Positions 2,857 to 60,861 of a DNA stretch of 64,000 nucleotides are shown here, in pieces. The stretch comes from Nitrospirota bacterium (GTDB lineage: Bacteria > Nitrospirota > Nitrospiria > Nitrospirales > Nitrospiraceae). The position numbers and the translations under genes are program-made. Where the stretch lies: contig JACRLR010000052.1 of the NCBI GenBank assembly GCA_016219645.1, forward strand, positions 62,001-126,000, read 5' to 3'. The notes under the pieces were generated by a model. The model was not told the origin of the DNA, did no database searches, and saw only the letters and a list, made by a program, of their open reading frames with translations. Numbering within the stretch: the first letter of the stretch is position 1; every line of letters starts with the position of its first letter.

Positions 2857-3579
2857 TCACGCCCCCACCATTTTCAATCGCTTCTTATTTCCCTTCAACG
2901 CCTCCAGCATCGATAGGAAAATCAGTCTCCCGTCGACATTCCCCAGCATCTCTTCCGCACAGCGCTCCGGATGCGGCATCATGCCCAGCACATTGCCCTC
3001 GGCATTGATGATCCCTGCAATATTATCTAAGGACCCGTTCGGATTCGCCTCCGGCGTCACCTTACCCTCCGGCGTGCAATAGCGCAGCACGACCTGTGCG
3101 TTCGCCTGCATCGCAGCCAGCGTGACCGGATCGGTGTAATAGTTCCCGTCTGCGTGGGCGATTGGAATCTTCAATACCTGACCAGACTCACAGCTCCCCG
3201 TAAACGCGGTCGCCGCATTCTCTACTTTCACGTAGACATCCCTGCAGATGAAATGCAGCGAGCGGTTGCGCAACATCGCGCCGGGCAATAACCCCGCCTC
3301 CAGCAGAATCTGGAACCCGTTACAGATACCGAGCACCAACCCGCCCTTCTTCGCAAACTCCTTCACCGCTCCCATCACCGGCGAGAACCGCGCGATCGCG
3401 CCCGTCCGCAAATAGTCGCCGTAGGAAAACCCCCCCGGCAGCACAATCGCATCCAGCCCCGCGAGCAGAGTCTCCTTATGCCAGATCATCTCCACATACT
3501 GCCCCAGCACATCCTTAAAGATATGCTGGCAGTCGTGATCGCAATTACTACCCGGGAACACCACCACGCCAATCTTCAT
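2857..3579 (-). CDS. purQ: Phosphoribosylformylglycinamidine synthase subunit PurQ
   Basis: PurQ is the class I glutamine amidotransferase subunit that supplies ammonia to PurL. The start is placed at [17 protein letters not shown] (3579), preceded by AGGTGA; five more in-frame codons lie upstream. The nucleophile elbow GICNGFQ with its catalytic Cys, the [12 protein letters not shown] segment and the C-terminal MMPHPER His-Glu dyad are all visible. At 240 residues it has the normal length. It follows purS, with a family A hairpin (3604-3706) in the gap, and precedes the accessory insert rather than purL directly. Confidence 0.96.
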
Positions 3580-3603
3580 TTCACCTACCCTCACTTCGTT
3601 ACA

Positions 3604-3706
3604 GCGAGATGGCAGGATTTGGTTTTACTGCGCGCGTCCAACGAGGGCCTTCTGAGGCCGCGCGTTGCGCGAGCACGAAACCAAGTCCTGCCGTCTCGCC
3701 ATCTCA
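3604..3706. repeat. Hairpin repeat, family A, copy 1 (purS-purQ junction)
   Basis: The core CTGCGCGCGTCC...GGCCGCGCGTTGCGCGAGCA (3628-3675) is the shared family A sequence. The left arm GAGATGGCAGGATTTGGTTT pairs with the right arm AAACCAAGTCCTGCC...GCCATCTC. The right arm ends exactly at the purS stop codon. The arms are unlike those at other loci. Confidence 0.85.
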
Positions 3707-3943
3707 CTGCAACTCGTACCGATATTCTTCAACGATCGTATTTGCCAGCAGCTTCTCACACATGGCCTTAACCTGTGCGTCCGCTTTCGCCTTGTCCGTT
3801 TCGATCACGTCCAGTTCCATATACTTCCCGACCCGCACATTGCCCGCATTCTTGAACCCCAGTGAATCAAGCGCATGCTCAATCGCCTTCCCTTGCGGGT
3901 CCAAGATGCCCTGCTTCAACGTCACATGAATTCTTGCCTTCAC
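3704..3943 (-). CDS. purS: Phosphoribosylformylglycinamidine synthase subunit PurS
   Basis: PurS is the small structural subunit that docks PurQ onto PurL. The best start is the GTG at 3943 (VKARIHVTLKQGILDPQG), five bases after a strong AAGGAGG; this gives 79 residues, the usual PurS size. An ATG 12 codons upstream lacks a ribosome-binding site. DPQGKAIEHALDSLGF and the C-terminal LANTIVEEYRYEL are typical of the family. It heads purS-purQ in the minus-strand operon. Confidence 0.93.
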   Translation of the reverse strand: MKARIHVTLKQGILDPQGKAIEHALDSLGFKNAGNVRVGKYMELDVIETDKAKADAQVKAMCEKLLANTIVEEYRYELQ

Positions 3944-4064
3944 CACACCCTCCTTAGCTCTTCTCACACCCCTCGACAAAGGGCGGCACGAACGCTCTCA
4001 TCCAGACGCATCGAACGGCCGTCACCCTTCTAAATGATCACTCTAAGCTCGCTCGTTACTGCTC

Positions 4065-4163
4065 AGGGATGGGGGCTGATTGATCTTCCACTGCGCGCGT
4101 CCAACGAGGGCCTTCAGAGGCCGCGCGTTGCGCGAGCACAGAAGATCATCAGCCTCCATCCCC
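4065..4163. repeat. Hairpin repeat, family A, copy 2
   Basis: Arms GGGATGGGGGCTGATTGATC and GATCATCAGCCTCCATCCCC flank the 51-nt core at 4089-4139. Arms and about 20 bp of upstream flank (AAGCTCGCTCGTTA) closely resemble the copy at 60762-60861. The two copies differ by a matched pair of changes that keeps the stem paired. Confidence 0.87.
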
Positions 4164-4396: not shown

Positions 4397-4446
4397 GACT
4401 CTCTCCCTACCCTTCCTTTACCAAAGGATTTGGTGCAGCCTTCGCA

Positions 4447-4652
4447 GGGGATGGTGGGGTTGTCCTCGACTGCGCGACCTTCTCACCCGCCCACCCTGGA
4501 CGCGCCAAGACACGTCCTTTCCCCCTGCGAGGGCCTCCCTCATCTGCTACGCGCTCGCATCCTCACGCAAGAGAGTGGCCAACTGCTTCCCTCTCTATCC
4601 TTCTGAGGCCGCGCGTTGCGCGAGCAAGGAGGACCGCCCCCACGTCTCCCTC
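4447..4652. repeat. Composite family A hairpin with an inserted second element, copy 3
   Basis: Left arm GGGATGGTGGGGTTGTCCTC (4448-4467) and right arm GAGGACCGCCCCCACGTCTC (4629-4648) pair. The core is split: ACTGCGCG on the left and CTTCTGAGGCCGCGCGTTGC on the right are separated by about 120 bp. The intervening 4478-4518 matches the reverse complement of 17253-17293, so another repeat appears to have landed in the apex. The 4397-4799 gap holds this element and copy 4, and no gene. Confidence 0.65.
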
Positions 4653-4686: not shown

Positions 4687-4783
4687 GAGGGGGCGGAGGG
4701 GTTGGCTTCCACTGCGCGCATCGAACGAGCACAGCTTTACCGTGCGCGTTCTGCGAGCAAAGAAGCCACCCCTCCGCTCCCTC
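4687..4783. repeat. Hairpin repeat, family A (variant core), copy 4
   Basis: Arms GAGGGGGCGGAGGGGTTGGC and GCCACCCCTCCGCTCCCTC flank a variant core (ACTGCGCGCATCGAACGAGC...CGTGCGCGTTCTGCGAGCA) shared with 57907-57955. It lies immediately downstream of purC. Confidence 0.85.
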
Positions 4784-4799
4784 TATCCGTTCCGTCCCC

Positions 4800-5681: not shown

Positions 5682-6473
5682 TTACTGCGCCAACACTTCG
5701 ATAATTTCATCCAACGATCTGACCGTCCCCAGCAAGGTCGGATGACCGAACCGCCGGTTATACTGGAACTCTTTCACCTTCTCTAACGCCAACACCAAGC
5801 TGTGGAAATCCTCCAACTTAGACGTTTCGAAATAGGTAATGAAATCTAGATCGTCGAGTCCGCTGGAGTAATAGAGTTTCCGCTTCACTGTCTTGATGTA
5901 GGGCACCGTAACTTCCGTATGCTCCTTCATCATCGCCGCGCGCTTGTCCTGATCCAGCCCCCACCATTCTGCGTTCTTCCGGATCGGAATCACGATGACG
6001 TAGGGCTGGGGGCCCGGCTCACTGGGAGTCTTCAGTTCGTTCTTGAGACTCTCCGGCATGCCCGGCACATAGTTGGCCTTCTTCGTCAGACCGGAAAAGA
6101 TCGTGCTATCGGTCAGGTGTTTGCCGAAGACACTACTCTGGAGATCCAGGAGAAATTGTTGGGTCTCGCGCAGCTCGGTCGCGTGGACGCGAAACAGCAC
6201 ATCGGCGCGATCGGAGAGTCCACGGAGAAGATAGACATCGATCGCCACTTTTTCTCGATGCTGCTCGACCACTCCCTTCAACGTCAGCAATTGCGTGATA
6301 CGCGTTGTCTGACCCTGTTTGGCCCAATCCGCATCGAGTCGGAACGCGGCAAAGGTGCCATAGACACCCGGTTCACTCAGAAGCTTGTCGCGATCAGCCG
6401 CCCCAACGGACGGCACCATCACCACACCTACCAACATCAGCATAGCCAAGCGCATGAACATGGACGGCCTCAT
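5682..6473 (-). CDS. cld: Periplasmic chlorite dismutase
   Basis: Chlorite dismutase is a haem b enzyme that converts chlorite to chloride and O2. The 263-residue precursor has a Sec signal peptide (LAMLMLVGVVMVPSVGAA, about residues 9-26). By alignment from memory to the N. defluvii enzyme, the proximal haem ligand is His185 (MMKEHTEV), the distal catalytic Arg is Arg198 (KTVKRKLY), and Lys166, Trp170 and Glu235 are also kept, so it should be catalytically competent. Length fits the long, pentameric clade. Its start overlaps the purB stop by 4 bp, so it is translationally coupled inside the purine operon. Heptamer-like repeats (GTGAAGC, CTTCACG) lie between it and purC. Confidence 0.93.
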   Translation of the reverse strand: MRPSMFMRLAMLMLVGVVMVPSVGAADRDKLLSEPGVYGTFAAFRLDADWAKQGQTTRITQLLTLKGVVEQHREKVAIDVYLLRGLSDRADVLFRVHATELRETQQFLLDLQSSVFGKHLTDSTIFSGLTKKANYVPGMPESLKNELKTPSEPGPQPYVIVIPIRKNAEWWGLDQDKRAAMMKEHTEVTVPYIKTVKRKLYYSSGLDDLDFITYFETSKLEDFHSLVLALEKVKEFQYNRRFGHPTLLGTVRSLDEIIEVLAQ

Positions 6474-8829: not shown

Positions 8830-8874
8830 CCCTCTTTACTACTTCCTTCCCCCTTGGCACATCAATACGTAATC

Positions 8875-8963
8875 GGGTGGTTGGGTTGGGCTCACTGCGC
8901 GCGTCCAACGAGGGCCTTCTGAGGCCGCGCGTTGCGCGAGCAAGAGACCGACCCAACCGTCCC
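8875..8963. repeat. Hairpin repeat, family A, copy 5 (ribBA-ribH junction)
   Basis: Arms GGGTGGTTGGGTTGGGCTC and GAGACCGACCCAACCGTCCC pair around the standard core (8894-8942). It fills the gap between the ribBA stop and the ribH start. A read-through effect (RNA stability or partial termination) is possible, but there is no U-tract. Confidence 0.85.
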
Positions 8964-8966
8964 TTC

Positions 8967-14130: not shown

Positions 14131-14261
14131 GTGCTCGCGCAACGCGCGGCCACCGAACGATGCGAGGGAACAGGCAGAATGTTCTTCTTGCTCGCAGAGC
14201 CCCCACGTTGAAACAGTGGTCGCTCGATGCGCGCAGTAAAGAACAATCTGCCTGCTCCCTC
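14131..14261. repeat. Family A hairpin (inverted) with a half-element before it, copy 6
   Basis: The complete element is 14164-14261: arms GAGGGAACAGGCAGAATGTT and GAACAATCTGCCTGCTCCCTC flank a core in reverse orientation (TTGCTCGCAGAGC...GCTCGATGCGCGCAGT). At 14131-14151 a separate fragment, TGCTCGCGCAACGCGCGGCC, is half of another core. The 14113-14651 gap contains only this, family B copy 2 and no gene. Confidence 0.75.
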
Positions 14262-14370
14262 TGGGAAAGTTGAGGAACCAGAAGGCTCTCTTTGGACGCG
14301 CGTGCAACATGACCGAACCAGGCTCTACTTTTCGATGCGGAGGCTGAGGCTCAGAGCGAACGTCGCTGGC

Positions 14371-54873: not shown

Positions 54874-56599
54874 AAAAAAGGAAATAGCGTTGCGCCATTG
54901 GTAACACCGCCATCGGATCACACTTCAATACTTGTCCATCGGCCTTCACGACATAGGTTTCCGGGTCCACATCGATGCACGGCAGCGCGTCGTTCAGCTT
55001 CATATCGCGCTTGCCGATCCCTCGGCACTTCTTGACCTCCGCCACGCGTTTCTGCAAGCCGAGAGATCTGTGCACCGCGTGGTCTATTGCGGCCTTGGAG
55101 AGAAACGTCAGGCTGGTGGAAAACGGCGTGCGGCCAAAGCTCCCGAACATGGGCCTGGTCAACACCGGCTGGGGCGTTGGGATAGAAGCGTTCGGATCTC
55201 CCATGGCAGCCGACATCGGGAATCCGCCCTTCAGGACGATTTCGGGCTTCACGCCGAAGAAGGCCGGCTTCCACAGGACCAGATCAGCCAGCTTGCCGAC
55301 TTCGACCGAGCCCACTTCGTGCCCGATGCCGTGCGCGATCGCCGGATTGATCGTGTACTTTGAGACATAGCGCCGCACACGAAGGTTGTCATTCGCGCCA
55401 GACAGTTTTTCCGCTGCGGTCTGCGACAGATGCCCCCGTTGCACTTTCATCTTGTGCGCCGTCTGCCAGGTGCGAATGATGACTTCGCCGACCCGCCCCA
55501 TCGCCTGCGAGTCGGATGACATAATGCTGATCGCCCCCATGTCGTGCAGGATATCTTCCGCCGCAATGGTCTCACGGCGAATGCGCGATTCGGCAAATGC
55601 GATGTCCTCCGGCACACGGGGATTTAAATGGTGACAGACCATGAGCATGTCGAGATGCTCATCCATCGTGTTCACCGTGAACGGCATCGTGGGATTTGTC
55701 GACGAGGGCAATACATTGGCCTCACCGCACACCTTGATAATGTCGGGAGCATGCCCGCCACCGGCGCCTTCCGTATGGAACGAGTGAATCGTCCGCCCCT
55801 TGAAGGCCTTGATGGTGTCTTCGACGAACCCGGCCTCGTTCAACGTGTCTGTATGGATGGCGACTTGAACATCGAATTCTTCCGCGACATCGAGGCAGGT
55901 GGAAATCGCCGCCGGCGTCGTACCCCAGTCTTCATGCAGCTTGAGCCCTATCGCGCCGGCCTCAACCTGTTCGCGTAAACCCTCAGGCAATGAAGAATTG
56001 CCCTTCCCGAGAAAACCGAGATTGATCGGAAACCCCTCCGCTGCTTCCAGCATCCGATGGATGTTCCAGGCGCCGGGCGTGCAGGTCGTGGCATTCGTCC
56101 CGGTGGCCGGGCCGGTGCCGCCACCGATCAACGTTGTGAGCCCATTCGCCAAGGCTTCATTGATGATCTGCGGGCAGATGAAATGGATGTGCGTATCGAT
56201 GCCACCGGCTGTAATAATTTTCCCCTCTGCCGACAGCACTTCGGTACAGGCGCCGACTTCCATTCCTTTTGTGACACCTTCCATCAGATCGGGATTGCCC
56301 GCCTTGCCTATGCCGACAATGCGGCCATCCCTGATGCCGATATCGGCCTTCACGATCCCCCACCAGTCGAGGATGATCGCGTTGGTGATCACAAGATCGA
56401 GCGCGCCCTTCGCGCGGGTGGCTGCCGGCGACTGGCCCATCCCGTCGCGGATGACCTTGCCGCCGCCGAACTTGGCCTCCTCACCAGGCACAGTCAGATC
56501 GCGCGTGACCTCGATCAGCAACTCCGTATCGGCCAGGCGAATGCGATCCCCCGCCGTAGGGCCATATAGATCGTTATATTGTCGCCGAGGAATTTTCAT
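54872..56599 (-). CDS. ureC: Urease subunit alpha (catalytic)
   Basis: UreC holds the dinickel site that hydrolyses urea to ammonia and carbamate. At 575 residues it is full length. Nickel and active-site residues are seen in [13 protein letters not shown] (two His), the carbamylated Lys in [37 protein letters not shown], and the mobile flap [20 protein letters not shown] with its acid/base His. The [20 protein letters not shown] start is canonical. Flanked by family C hairpins on both sides. Confidence 0.98.
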
Positions 56600-57732: not shown

Positions 57733-57826
57733 GGGTGGCCCGATTGGTCTCCTACTGCGCGCGTCCAACGAGGGCCTTCTCAGGCCGCGCCTTGCGCGAG
57801 CAGGAGAACGCTCCTGTCCCCTGCCC
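57733..57826. repeat. Hairpin repeat, family A, copy 7 (urtE-ureA gap)
   Basis: The standard core (57754-57801) is present, but the arms GGGTGGCCCGATTGGTCTCC and GGAGAACGCTCCTGTCCCCT pair only near the core, so this copy looks eroded. The gap 57534-57986 holds only this and copy 8. Confidence 0.75.
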
Positions 57827-57883
57827 ACCCCCTCCCATCCCTTCTCTTTTCTATTCGCTCGCGGAAGCGGGAAAGTGGCATGA

Positions 57884-57978
57884 GCGGGATGGCTAGGTTG
57901 GGCTCTACTGCGCGCATCGAACGAGCACATTCTTATCGTGCGCGTTCTGCGAGCAAGGAGTCCACCTAGCCATCCCGC
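57884..57978. repeat. Hairpin repeat, family A (variant core), copy 8
   Basis: Arms GCGGGATGGCTAGGTTGGGC and CCACCTAGCCATCCCGC pair nearly perfectly around the variant core shared with 4710-4758. It stands right after the urtE stop. Confidence 0.87.
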
Positions 57979-60652: not shown

Positions 60653-60761
60653 CGTTGTCTTCTCTCTACTCCCCAAGGGTGCGGCGCGAGTCCATTCCAC
60701 TGCGCGCATCGACGCCCTTCATCCTTCTCGATAATCCTTCCAAGCTCGCTCGTTATCTCCC

Positions 60762-60861
60762 AGGGATGGGGCCTGATTGATCTTCCACTGCGCGCGTCCA
60801 ACGAGGGCCTTCTGAGGCCGCGCGTTGCGCGAGCACAGAAGATCATCAGGCTCCATCCCCT
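60762..60861. repeat. Hairpin repeat, family A, copy 9 (urtB-urtC junction), with a half-element before it
   Basis: Arms GGGATGGGGCCTGATTGATC and GATCATCAGGCTCCATCCCC around the standard core (60786-60836). It is nearly identical to copy 2 at 4065-4163. At 60676-60712 a half element (left arm and start of the variant core only) remains. Confidence 0.87.

What the first reader, a model, noticed from the sequence alone, without database searches (positions are those of the whole stretch)
4065..4163. Hairpin family with a constant apical core and locus-specific, self-complementary stems
At least eight sites (3604, 4065, 4687, 8875, 14164, 57733, 57884, 60762) share a core of about 50 nt, or a variant of it. 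The flanking arms of 19-24 nt differ completely between most sites, yet at nearly every site left and right arms pair with each other. Ordinary REP or MITE repeats keep their arms constant. Either the core inserts into the apex of existing palindromes, or the arms evolve fast under a pairing constraint. All sites are intergenic, most within operons. I know of no described element with this architecture, but I could not search.
Basis: seen in the sequence. Interest (0 to 1): 0.8.

Follow-up and report, generated by a model that had tools for sequence, protein, structure and literature searches.

The report
Self-nesting hairpin repeats in Nitrospira
Nitrospira genomes carry well over a hundred copies of a DNA hairpin whose inner part hardly changes while its outer stem keeps changing on both sides so that it still pairs; copies sit right behind genes and have repeatedly been inserted into the tips of one another, which points to an undescribed family of mobile hairpins with a possible role in messenger RNA.

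Summary
The 47-nt core is present in at least 150 intact copies in this genome (all E below 1e-9). It is confined to the Nitrospira family. Left and right arms pair far better than swapped arms (-40 vs -22 kcal/mol). The core is an imperfect hairpin with two invariant mismatches and an invariant GA bulge; its helices covary. Arms are not arbitrary palindromes. They fall into recurrent subfamilies plus singletons, share a purine/pyrimidine blueprint, are conserved at the same junction across species, and change compensatorily there. So "arms evolve fast under a pairing constraint" is supported. "The core inserts into existing palindromes" is not: the one core-less orthologue is a later deletion with a core scar. 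The new finding is recursive nesting. Whole units (arms, core, often a conserved 3' tail) sit in the tip of other copies, up to three deep, sometimes between duplicated loop sequence. Units lie in fixed orientation, often starting at the stop codon of the upstream gene; at two junctions examined, other species carry unrelated hairpins there. Best reading: transposase-less, REP/MITE-like mobile hairpins that use one another's tips as targets and persist as mRNA 3'-end hairpins. No mobilising enzyme was found; a RAYT partner is unlikely.

The parts
3604..3702 (-). Element between purS (3704-3979) and purQ (2857-3594): arms plus class A core at 3629-3675; fills the whole spacer
   Evidence: same arms at this junction in L225, L232, L233, L234
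3981..4022 (-). Remnant (one arm and half core) of an older outer element, into whose tip the next unit was inserted; the other half is lost here but intact in relatives
   Evidence: GTTCGATGCGTCTGGATGAGAGCGTTCGTGCCGCCCT matches the outer element of L234/L224/L241
4042..4054 (-). Conserved 3' tail motif GAGCGAGCTTAGA of the S1 unit
   Evidence: 36 copies, 30 of them with a core end 25-40 nt upstream (29 at 36-40 nt); reversed control 2
4065..4163 (-). S1-subfamily element: arms plus class A core at 4092-4138
   Evidence: RNA fold -65.5 kcal/mol
4446..4650 (-). A-type element; left arm and TGCGCG about 4446-4476, foreign insert with ACCTTCTCACCCGCCCACC, right half core 4601-4626, right arm to about 4650
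4687..4786 (-). B-type element: arms plus class B core at 4713-4759
   Evidence: -73.6 kcal/mol; E 8.8e-16
8872..8965 (-). Element between ribAB and ribH: arms plus class A core at 8896-8942
14132..14304 (+). Nested pair on the opposite strand: outer half core at 14132-14147, inner S4 element with core at 14189-14235, other outer half at about 14288-14304
57733..57829 (-). Chimeric element, core 57756-57802, arms from two different elements and pairing poorly
   Evidence: -21.9 kcal/mol; right arm matches GGCCAGGGGACAGGAGCGTTCTCC of L244/L245/L255
57884..57980 (-). Element directly after the urtE stop codon: arms plus class B core at 57909-57955
   Evidence: same arms in L243, L247, L251
60762..60860 (-). 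S1-subfamily element with core 60789-60835 and tail motif 60739-60751, sitting in the remnant of an older element (GGGTGCGGCGCGAGTCC arm) whose other half is present in G135

Best explanation
This is a family of non-coding, transposase-less mobile hairpins of roughly 100-150 nt that is specific to the Nitrospira family. Each unit is one imperfect stem: an outer stem (arms) and a nearly constant inner stem (core) with two fixed 1x1 mismatches and a two-base bulge, closed by a variable small hairpin; some subfamilies carry a conserved 3' tail. Shown: abundance, structure, pairing constraint on the arms, subfamilies that occur at many loci as whole units, whole units lying in the tips of other units, and a strong bias to lie just behind the stop codon of the upstream gene in one orientation. 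Inferred: an unidentified trans-acting factor recognises the core (as folded single-stranded DNA, or as RNA) and moves the units, with hairpin tips and stop-codon-proximal sites as preferred targets. Once in place, a unit works as an intercistronic or 3'-end mRNA hairpin, so pairing is kept while the arm sequence drifts by compensatory change. Recombination between copies makes chimeras.
For: Copy number. Distribution: the exact pattern is common in the window's family, abundant in its genus (up to about 150), and sporadic at control level outside it (named Nitrospira records). Structure: the T4/C44 mismatch in 97 of 97 copies, C14/T32 in 96, the G38 A39 bulge in 96, while pairs 8-40, 9-37 and 11-35 swap between GC, AT and CG. 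Arms. Recurrent subfamilies carry a fixed 3' tail 36-40 nt after the core. Nesting: of 102 intact cores 30 have an outer left half on the correct side (7 on the wrong side) and 17 an outer right half (0 on the wrong side). Nine have both, and their outer arms pair at -29.3 vs -18.4 swapped. Insertion difference between orthologues: L236 carries an S5 unit in the loop of the element that is uninterrupted in L234, L235 and L241. In all 8 complete nests of S3/S4-type units listed a GAA(GG)-like loop sequence stands on both sides. Position: the 5' neighbour gene reads into the element in 71 of 97 cases (p 5e-6); within 60 nt of the neighbour 38 vs 3 in the other orientation.
Against: No mobilising enzyme was identified. 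Insertion of S1/S5-type units replaces part of the target tip and shows no clean duplication, so boundaries are not uniform. The duplicated GAA(GG) is short and its neighbouring base differs between the two sides. Gene positions come from a crude caller. Most copies seem old, and part of the spread could be recombination between copies. A role in mRNA is inferred from position and pairing only.
Confidence: 0.58

Rival explanations
1. A cis-acting structured RNA (intercistronic processing or 3'-stabilising hairpin) that spreads only passively, by recombination and duplication among copies; mobility in the strict sense plays no part.
For: Fixed orientation and stop-codon-proximal position; RNA-like covariation with invariant mismatches; at two junctions other species carry unrelated hairpins that also begin near the stop codon, as if a hairpin as such were needed; chimeric copies.
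Against: Subfamilies such as S1 and S5 occur at many unrelated loci with arms, core and tail together, and an S5 unit is present or absent in the same host hairpin among relatives, which calls for insertion. Some junctions lack any long hairpin in some species.
Confidence: 0.22
2. The core is an independent element that inserts into the apex of pre-existing, unrelated genomic palindromes; the arms belong to the host site.
For: Arms are locus-specific and conserved among orthologues; a core-less hairpin with the same arms exists at one junction (L240).
Against: L240 is best read as a derived deletion retaining core sequence. Arm classes share a blueprint (YYYY next to the core on the 5' side, GT then purines on the 3' side, purine-rich distal 5' arm). 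Recurrent subfamilies occur with their arms.
Confidence: 0.08
3. They are REP/BIME sequences mobilised by a RAYT (TnpA-REP) tyrosine transposase.
For: High-copy intergenic hairpins with mismatch or bulge, as in long REPs; some genomes of the genus have RAYT-like Y1 genes.
Against: Y1_Tnp was not found in G077, G153 and G333, all 99% complete, which hold 70, 91 and 99 copies. The one RAYT-like gene here has no copy within its 3.3-kb locus, and the 30 Y1 loci examined together show one core hit. No GT[AG]G foot 5' of the hairpin was seen; arms are not constant.
Confidence: 0.07
4. They are ordinary intrinsic transcription terminators or remnants of them.
For: GC-rich hairpins behind stop codons in the sense orientation.
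Against: TTTT within 20-45 nt after the core in 2 of 99 copies in the sense direction; many lie inside operons such as purC-purS-purQ.
Confidence: 0.03

Closest known systems
REP / BIME / REPIN sequences and RAYT (TnpA-REP) transposases
   Same: Many short, intergenic, GC-rich imperfect hairpins; subfamilies; mosaics of several units; long REPs have a bulge (PMC6006769)
   Different: Here the inner core is constant and the outer stem variable, no GT[AG]G foot, no associated RAYT, recursive nesting at hairpin tips, fixed orientation right behind stop codons
SMR-A small mobile repeats of Haloquadratum walsbyi that insert in the palindromes of PATEs and IS605-type elements (PMC3119063)
   Same: Small, transposase-free, with a strong preference for palindromes of other elements
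   Different: Archaeal, no sequence comparison made; they target palindromes of other element types, whereas here the target is the tip of the same family, repeatedly; SMR-A make no target duplication
IS elements that insert in the loop of palindromic units, such as IS1397 and ISKpn1 (from own knowledge, not looked up)
   Same: Hairpin loop as preferred target
   Different: Those are transposase-encoding insertion sequences that use REP loops; here the insert is itself a hairpin of the same family
Double-hairpin elements of Allomyces mitochondrial DNA (Paquin et al. 2000, as cited in PMC7218506) and the palindromic repeats of Volvox organelles (PMC2670323)
   Same: Small, selfish-looking palindromic elements spread through intergenic DNA
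   Different: Organellar; no constant inner core with variable paired arms and a fixed place relative to stop codons known to me
MITEs of bacteria (Correia, RUP, ERIC and similar; own knowledge)
   Same: Non-coding, about 100-150 nt, foldable end to end, transcribed with neighbouring genes
   Different: MITE arms are constant within a family and match a parent IS; no parent was found and arms vary with compensation

Membership tests
REP / RAYT system | Conserved GT[AG]G tetranucleotide 0-2 nt 5' of the hairpin | tested here: not met
   Outer ends of the units are locus-specific; the only conserved GT follows the core on its 3' side, inside the stem
REP / RAYT system | A RAYT gene flanked by the repeats (REPtron) | tested here: not met
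   no flanking copies at the own gene, one core hit in 30 Y1 loci, and three 99%-complete genomes without Y1_Tnp hold 70-99 copies
REP / RAYT system | High-copy intergenic hairpins with near-constant stems | tested here: not met
   High copy number and intergenic location are met, but the outer stems vary between sites
MITE | Constant terminal inverted repeats shared with an autonomous parent | tested here: inconclusive
   Ends are inverted repeats by construction but differ between subfamilies; no parent was searched for beyond Y1_Tnp
MITE | Target site duplication | tested here: inconclusive
   GAA(GG)-like sequence on both sides in 8 of 8 complete S3/S4-type nests, none seen for S1/S5-type insertions
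Small mobile repeats targeting palindromes (SMR-A-like) | Insertion within palindromes of other elements | tested here: met
   30 of 102 cores have an outer half-core on the correct side. Membership by descent is not claimed
Intrinsic terminator | Hairpin followed by a T run | tested here: not met
   2 of 99 copies in the sense direction
Known Rfam families | Match above gathering score | tested here: not met
   only sub-threshold hits, mostly to microRNA precursors, as any long hairpin gives

The most novel reading that the evidence does not exclude
A self-targeting mobile hairpin: its core is recognised in folded form by an unknown factor that inserts new units into the tips of hairpins, preferably its own, so that stems grow recursively from the inside. 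The resulting stop-codon-proximal stems serve the host as replaceable mRNA 3'-end modules, for which any sequence will do as long as it pairs.
Probability: 0.25. Interest if true: 0.85.

Novelty: new variant of a known kind. Interest (0 to 1): 0.62.

Why it matters
The family turns the usual REP/MITE picture inside out: the middle is constant and the ends vary under a pairing rule. It gives natural series of hairpins nested in hairpins, usable to study how palindrome-targeting elements insert and how long palindromes survive in a chromosome. Because the same operon junctions carry unrelated hairpins in related species, it also offers a direct test of whether a hairpin behind a stop codon is under selection irrespective of its sequence, in nitrifying bacteria of environmental importance in which little is known about mRNA processing.

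Tried and rejected
RAYT partner: searched Y1_Tnp in the own genome and in 32 genomes of the genus; no association. Empty site at J2 (L240) as proof of a pre-existing palindrome: rejected after a tree of the region and the finding of a core scar. Exchange of the core inside constant arms at J3: looked convincing, but the window carries two tandem elements there (A- and B-type), so differential loss and recombination explain it. Intrinsic terminators: no T run. Rfam: nothing. Regular 8-nt spacing of arm mismatches: mismatches do pile up about 9-10 and 17-18 nt from the core, but arm classes are not independent and I make no claim. Synteny comparison with G108 and G135 gave few alignable junctions because the spacers between genes differ so much. 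Two paper searches returned nothing.

Full report
Observation. The sites exist as described. In the window the right half of the core has 10 matches with up to 3 mismatches against 1.44 expected. From 1.25 Mb of own sequence I collected 99 complete copies. Their arms pair with a mean of -40.2 kcal/mol against -22.3 for swapped arms. About ten copies pair poorly; in most of these the left and right arm belong to different subfamilies, for example 57733 in the window.

Anatomy. The core is TGC-T-CGCG-CAACG-C-hairpin-T-CGTTG-GA-CGCG-C-GCA. In 97 copies of 47 nt the T4/C44 mismatch is invariant, C14/T32 holds in 96 and the G38 A39 bulge in 96, while the helices between change: pair 8-40 is GC 67 / AT 26, pair 9-37 is GC 69 / CG 26, pair 11-35 is AT 78 / GC 17. 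Three apical types occur (GGCC..GGCC, CACG..GTG, CCACG..GTGG). Arms of about 25 nt follow (median). Some subfamilies have a 3' tail GAGCRAGCTTGGA: 36 copies in the sample, reversed control 2, 30 of them with a core end a short way upstream, 29 of these at 36-40 nt.

The arms. They are not all different: left-arm clusters hold 32, 26, 6, 4, 4, 3, 2, 2 of 99, with 20 singletons. One representative per class shows a shared blueprint: four pyrimidines next to the core on the 5' side, GT then purines on the 3' side, purine-rich distal 5' arm and pyrimidine-rich distal 3' arm. At a given junction the arms are the same element in different species: purS-purQ in the window, L225, L232, L233 and L234; urtE-ureA in the window, L243, L247 and L251. 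At the purC / small-gene junction thirteen elements give 13 pairs with a change on both sides (8.3 in shuffles, 0 of 500 reach it) and 37 such cells (14.5); sliding the partners leaves 0 to 3 pairs. So arms drift under a pairing rule. That set mixes two related tandem paralogues, which does not weaken the covariation but means it is not all orthologous change.

Is there a pre-existing palindrome? At the small-gene / purS junction L240 has AAGGGCGACATGAACGCTC-GCAAT-GAGAGCATCCATATCGCCCTT, the same arms without core. On a tree from five genes it lies inside a group whose other branches carry the core there, and the loop keeps GCTCGCA of the core, so I read it as a deletion. I found no true empty palindrome.

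Nesting. Several half cores flank a complete element. Of 102 intact cores 30 have an outer left half 30-110 nt on the 5' side, against 7 on the wrong side, and 17 an outer right half on the 3' side, against 0. Nine have both, and the outer arms then pair (-29.3 vs -18.4 swapped). L089 shows three levels (read by eye). Many combinations of inner and outer subfamily occur, so nesting happened repeatedly. L236 carries an S5 unit inside the loop of the element that is uninterrupted in L234, L235 and L241. In the eight complete nests of S3/S4-type units a GAA(GG)-like loop sequence stands on both sides. S1-type units instead replace the small apical hairpin between GGAAC and GTTCGA (L049, L069). 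The window itself has two cases: the S1 units at 4065 and 60762 lie in remnants of older elements that are better preserved in relatives.

Position. The gene on the 5' side reads into the element in 71 of 97 cases; within 60 nt of that gene the count is 38 against 3 for the other orientation (crude gene calls). Many elements begin at the stop codon itself. At purS-purQ and ribAB-ribH other species carry unrelated hairpins there, which again mostly begin within a few nucleotides of the stop codon and are mostly more stable than shuffled sequence, z about -2 to -6, with exceptions near or above -1. This suggests either that a hairpin is useful there or that such sites are hot targets.

Distribution. 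In 396 Nitrospirota genomes the pattern is abundant in the window's genus (2 to about 150 exact hits), lower in other genera of the family (0 to about 30) and at control level elsewhere. Named records are Nitrospira and other Nitrospirota metagenome bins.

Mechanism. Y1_Tnp genes were searched because imperfect hairpins with a bulge suggest RAYT. The own genome has one, without copies nearby. In the genus, G077, G153 and G333 (99% complete) have no Y1_Tnp hit but 70, 91 and 99 copies, and 30 Y1 loci hold one core hit. I therefore regard the mobilising factor as unknown. Shown: units, nesting, pairing constraint, position. Inferred: recognition of the folded core, preference for hairpin tips, role in mRNA.

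Literature. Within the open-access library no paper found describes such repeats in Nitrospira; one survey counts REPs in N. moscoviensis only. REP/RAYT features are taken from PMC6006769. The nearest behaviour is that of SMR-A repeats of Haloquadratum, which insert in palindromes of PATEs and IS605-type elements (PMC3119063). Subscription literature was not searchable, so novelty is provisional.

Noticed in passing
window 4477-4534; also L060, L074, L086, L232, L250: A second, unrelated insert (ACCTTCTCACCCGCCCACC plus a GGACGCGCCAAGACGCGTCC-like hairpin) recurs at the same place inside the core of several copies.
   Followed up: partly
purS-purQ spacer in L226, L228, L223, L239, L222: Unrelated palindromes made of degenerate 6-8 nt tandem motifs (GTGCTGA, GGTTGAG, GTGATGG, AAACGTG) occupy the spacer that holds the core element in other species.
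   Followed up: partly
flanks of many arrays, e.g. L069, L079, L228: Another repeat family (AGGATGCTCAAAAAGGCCGTCCAGCAAGGCCGCAGCGAG ... GACTTTTTCAGCATCCT), itself a long inverted repeat, often adjoins the elements.
   Followed up: no
L253, spacer upstream of urtB: A GGGGACAGGCACCG ... CGGAGCCAGTCCCC palindrome family fills the spacer in this species.
   Followed up: no
window 56158-56453: Rfam match to 5_ureB_sRNA (105 bits, gathering 40) on the + strand, opposite the urease genes, in a Nitrospira.
   Followed up: no
window 5682-6473: A chlorite-dismutase-like gene sits between purC and purB.
   Followed up: no
arms of the 32 distinct arm classes: Stem defects pile up about 9-10 and 17-18 nt from the core, roughly every 8 nt; significance not established.
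   Followed up: partly
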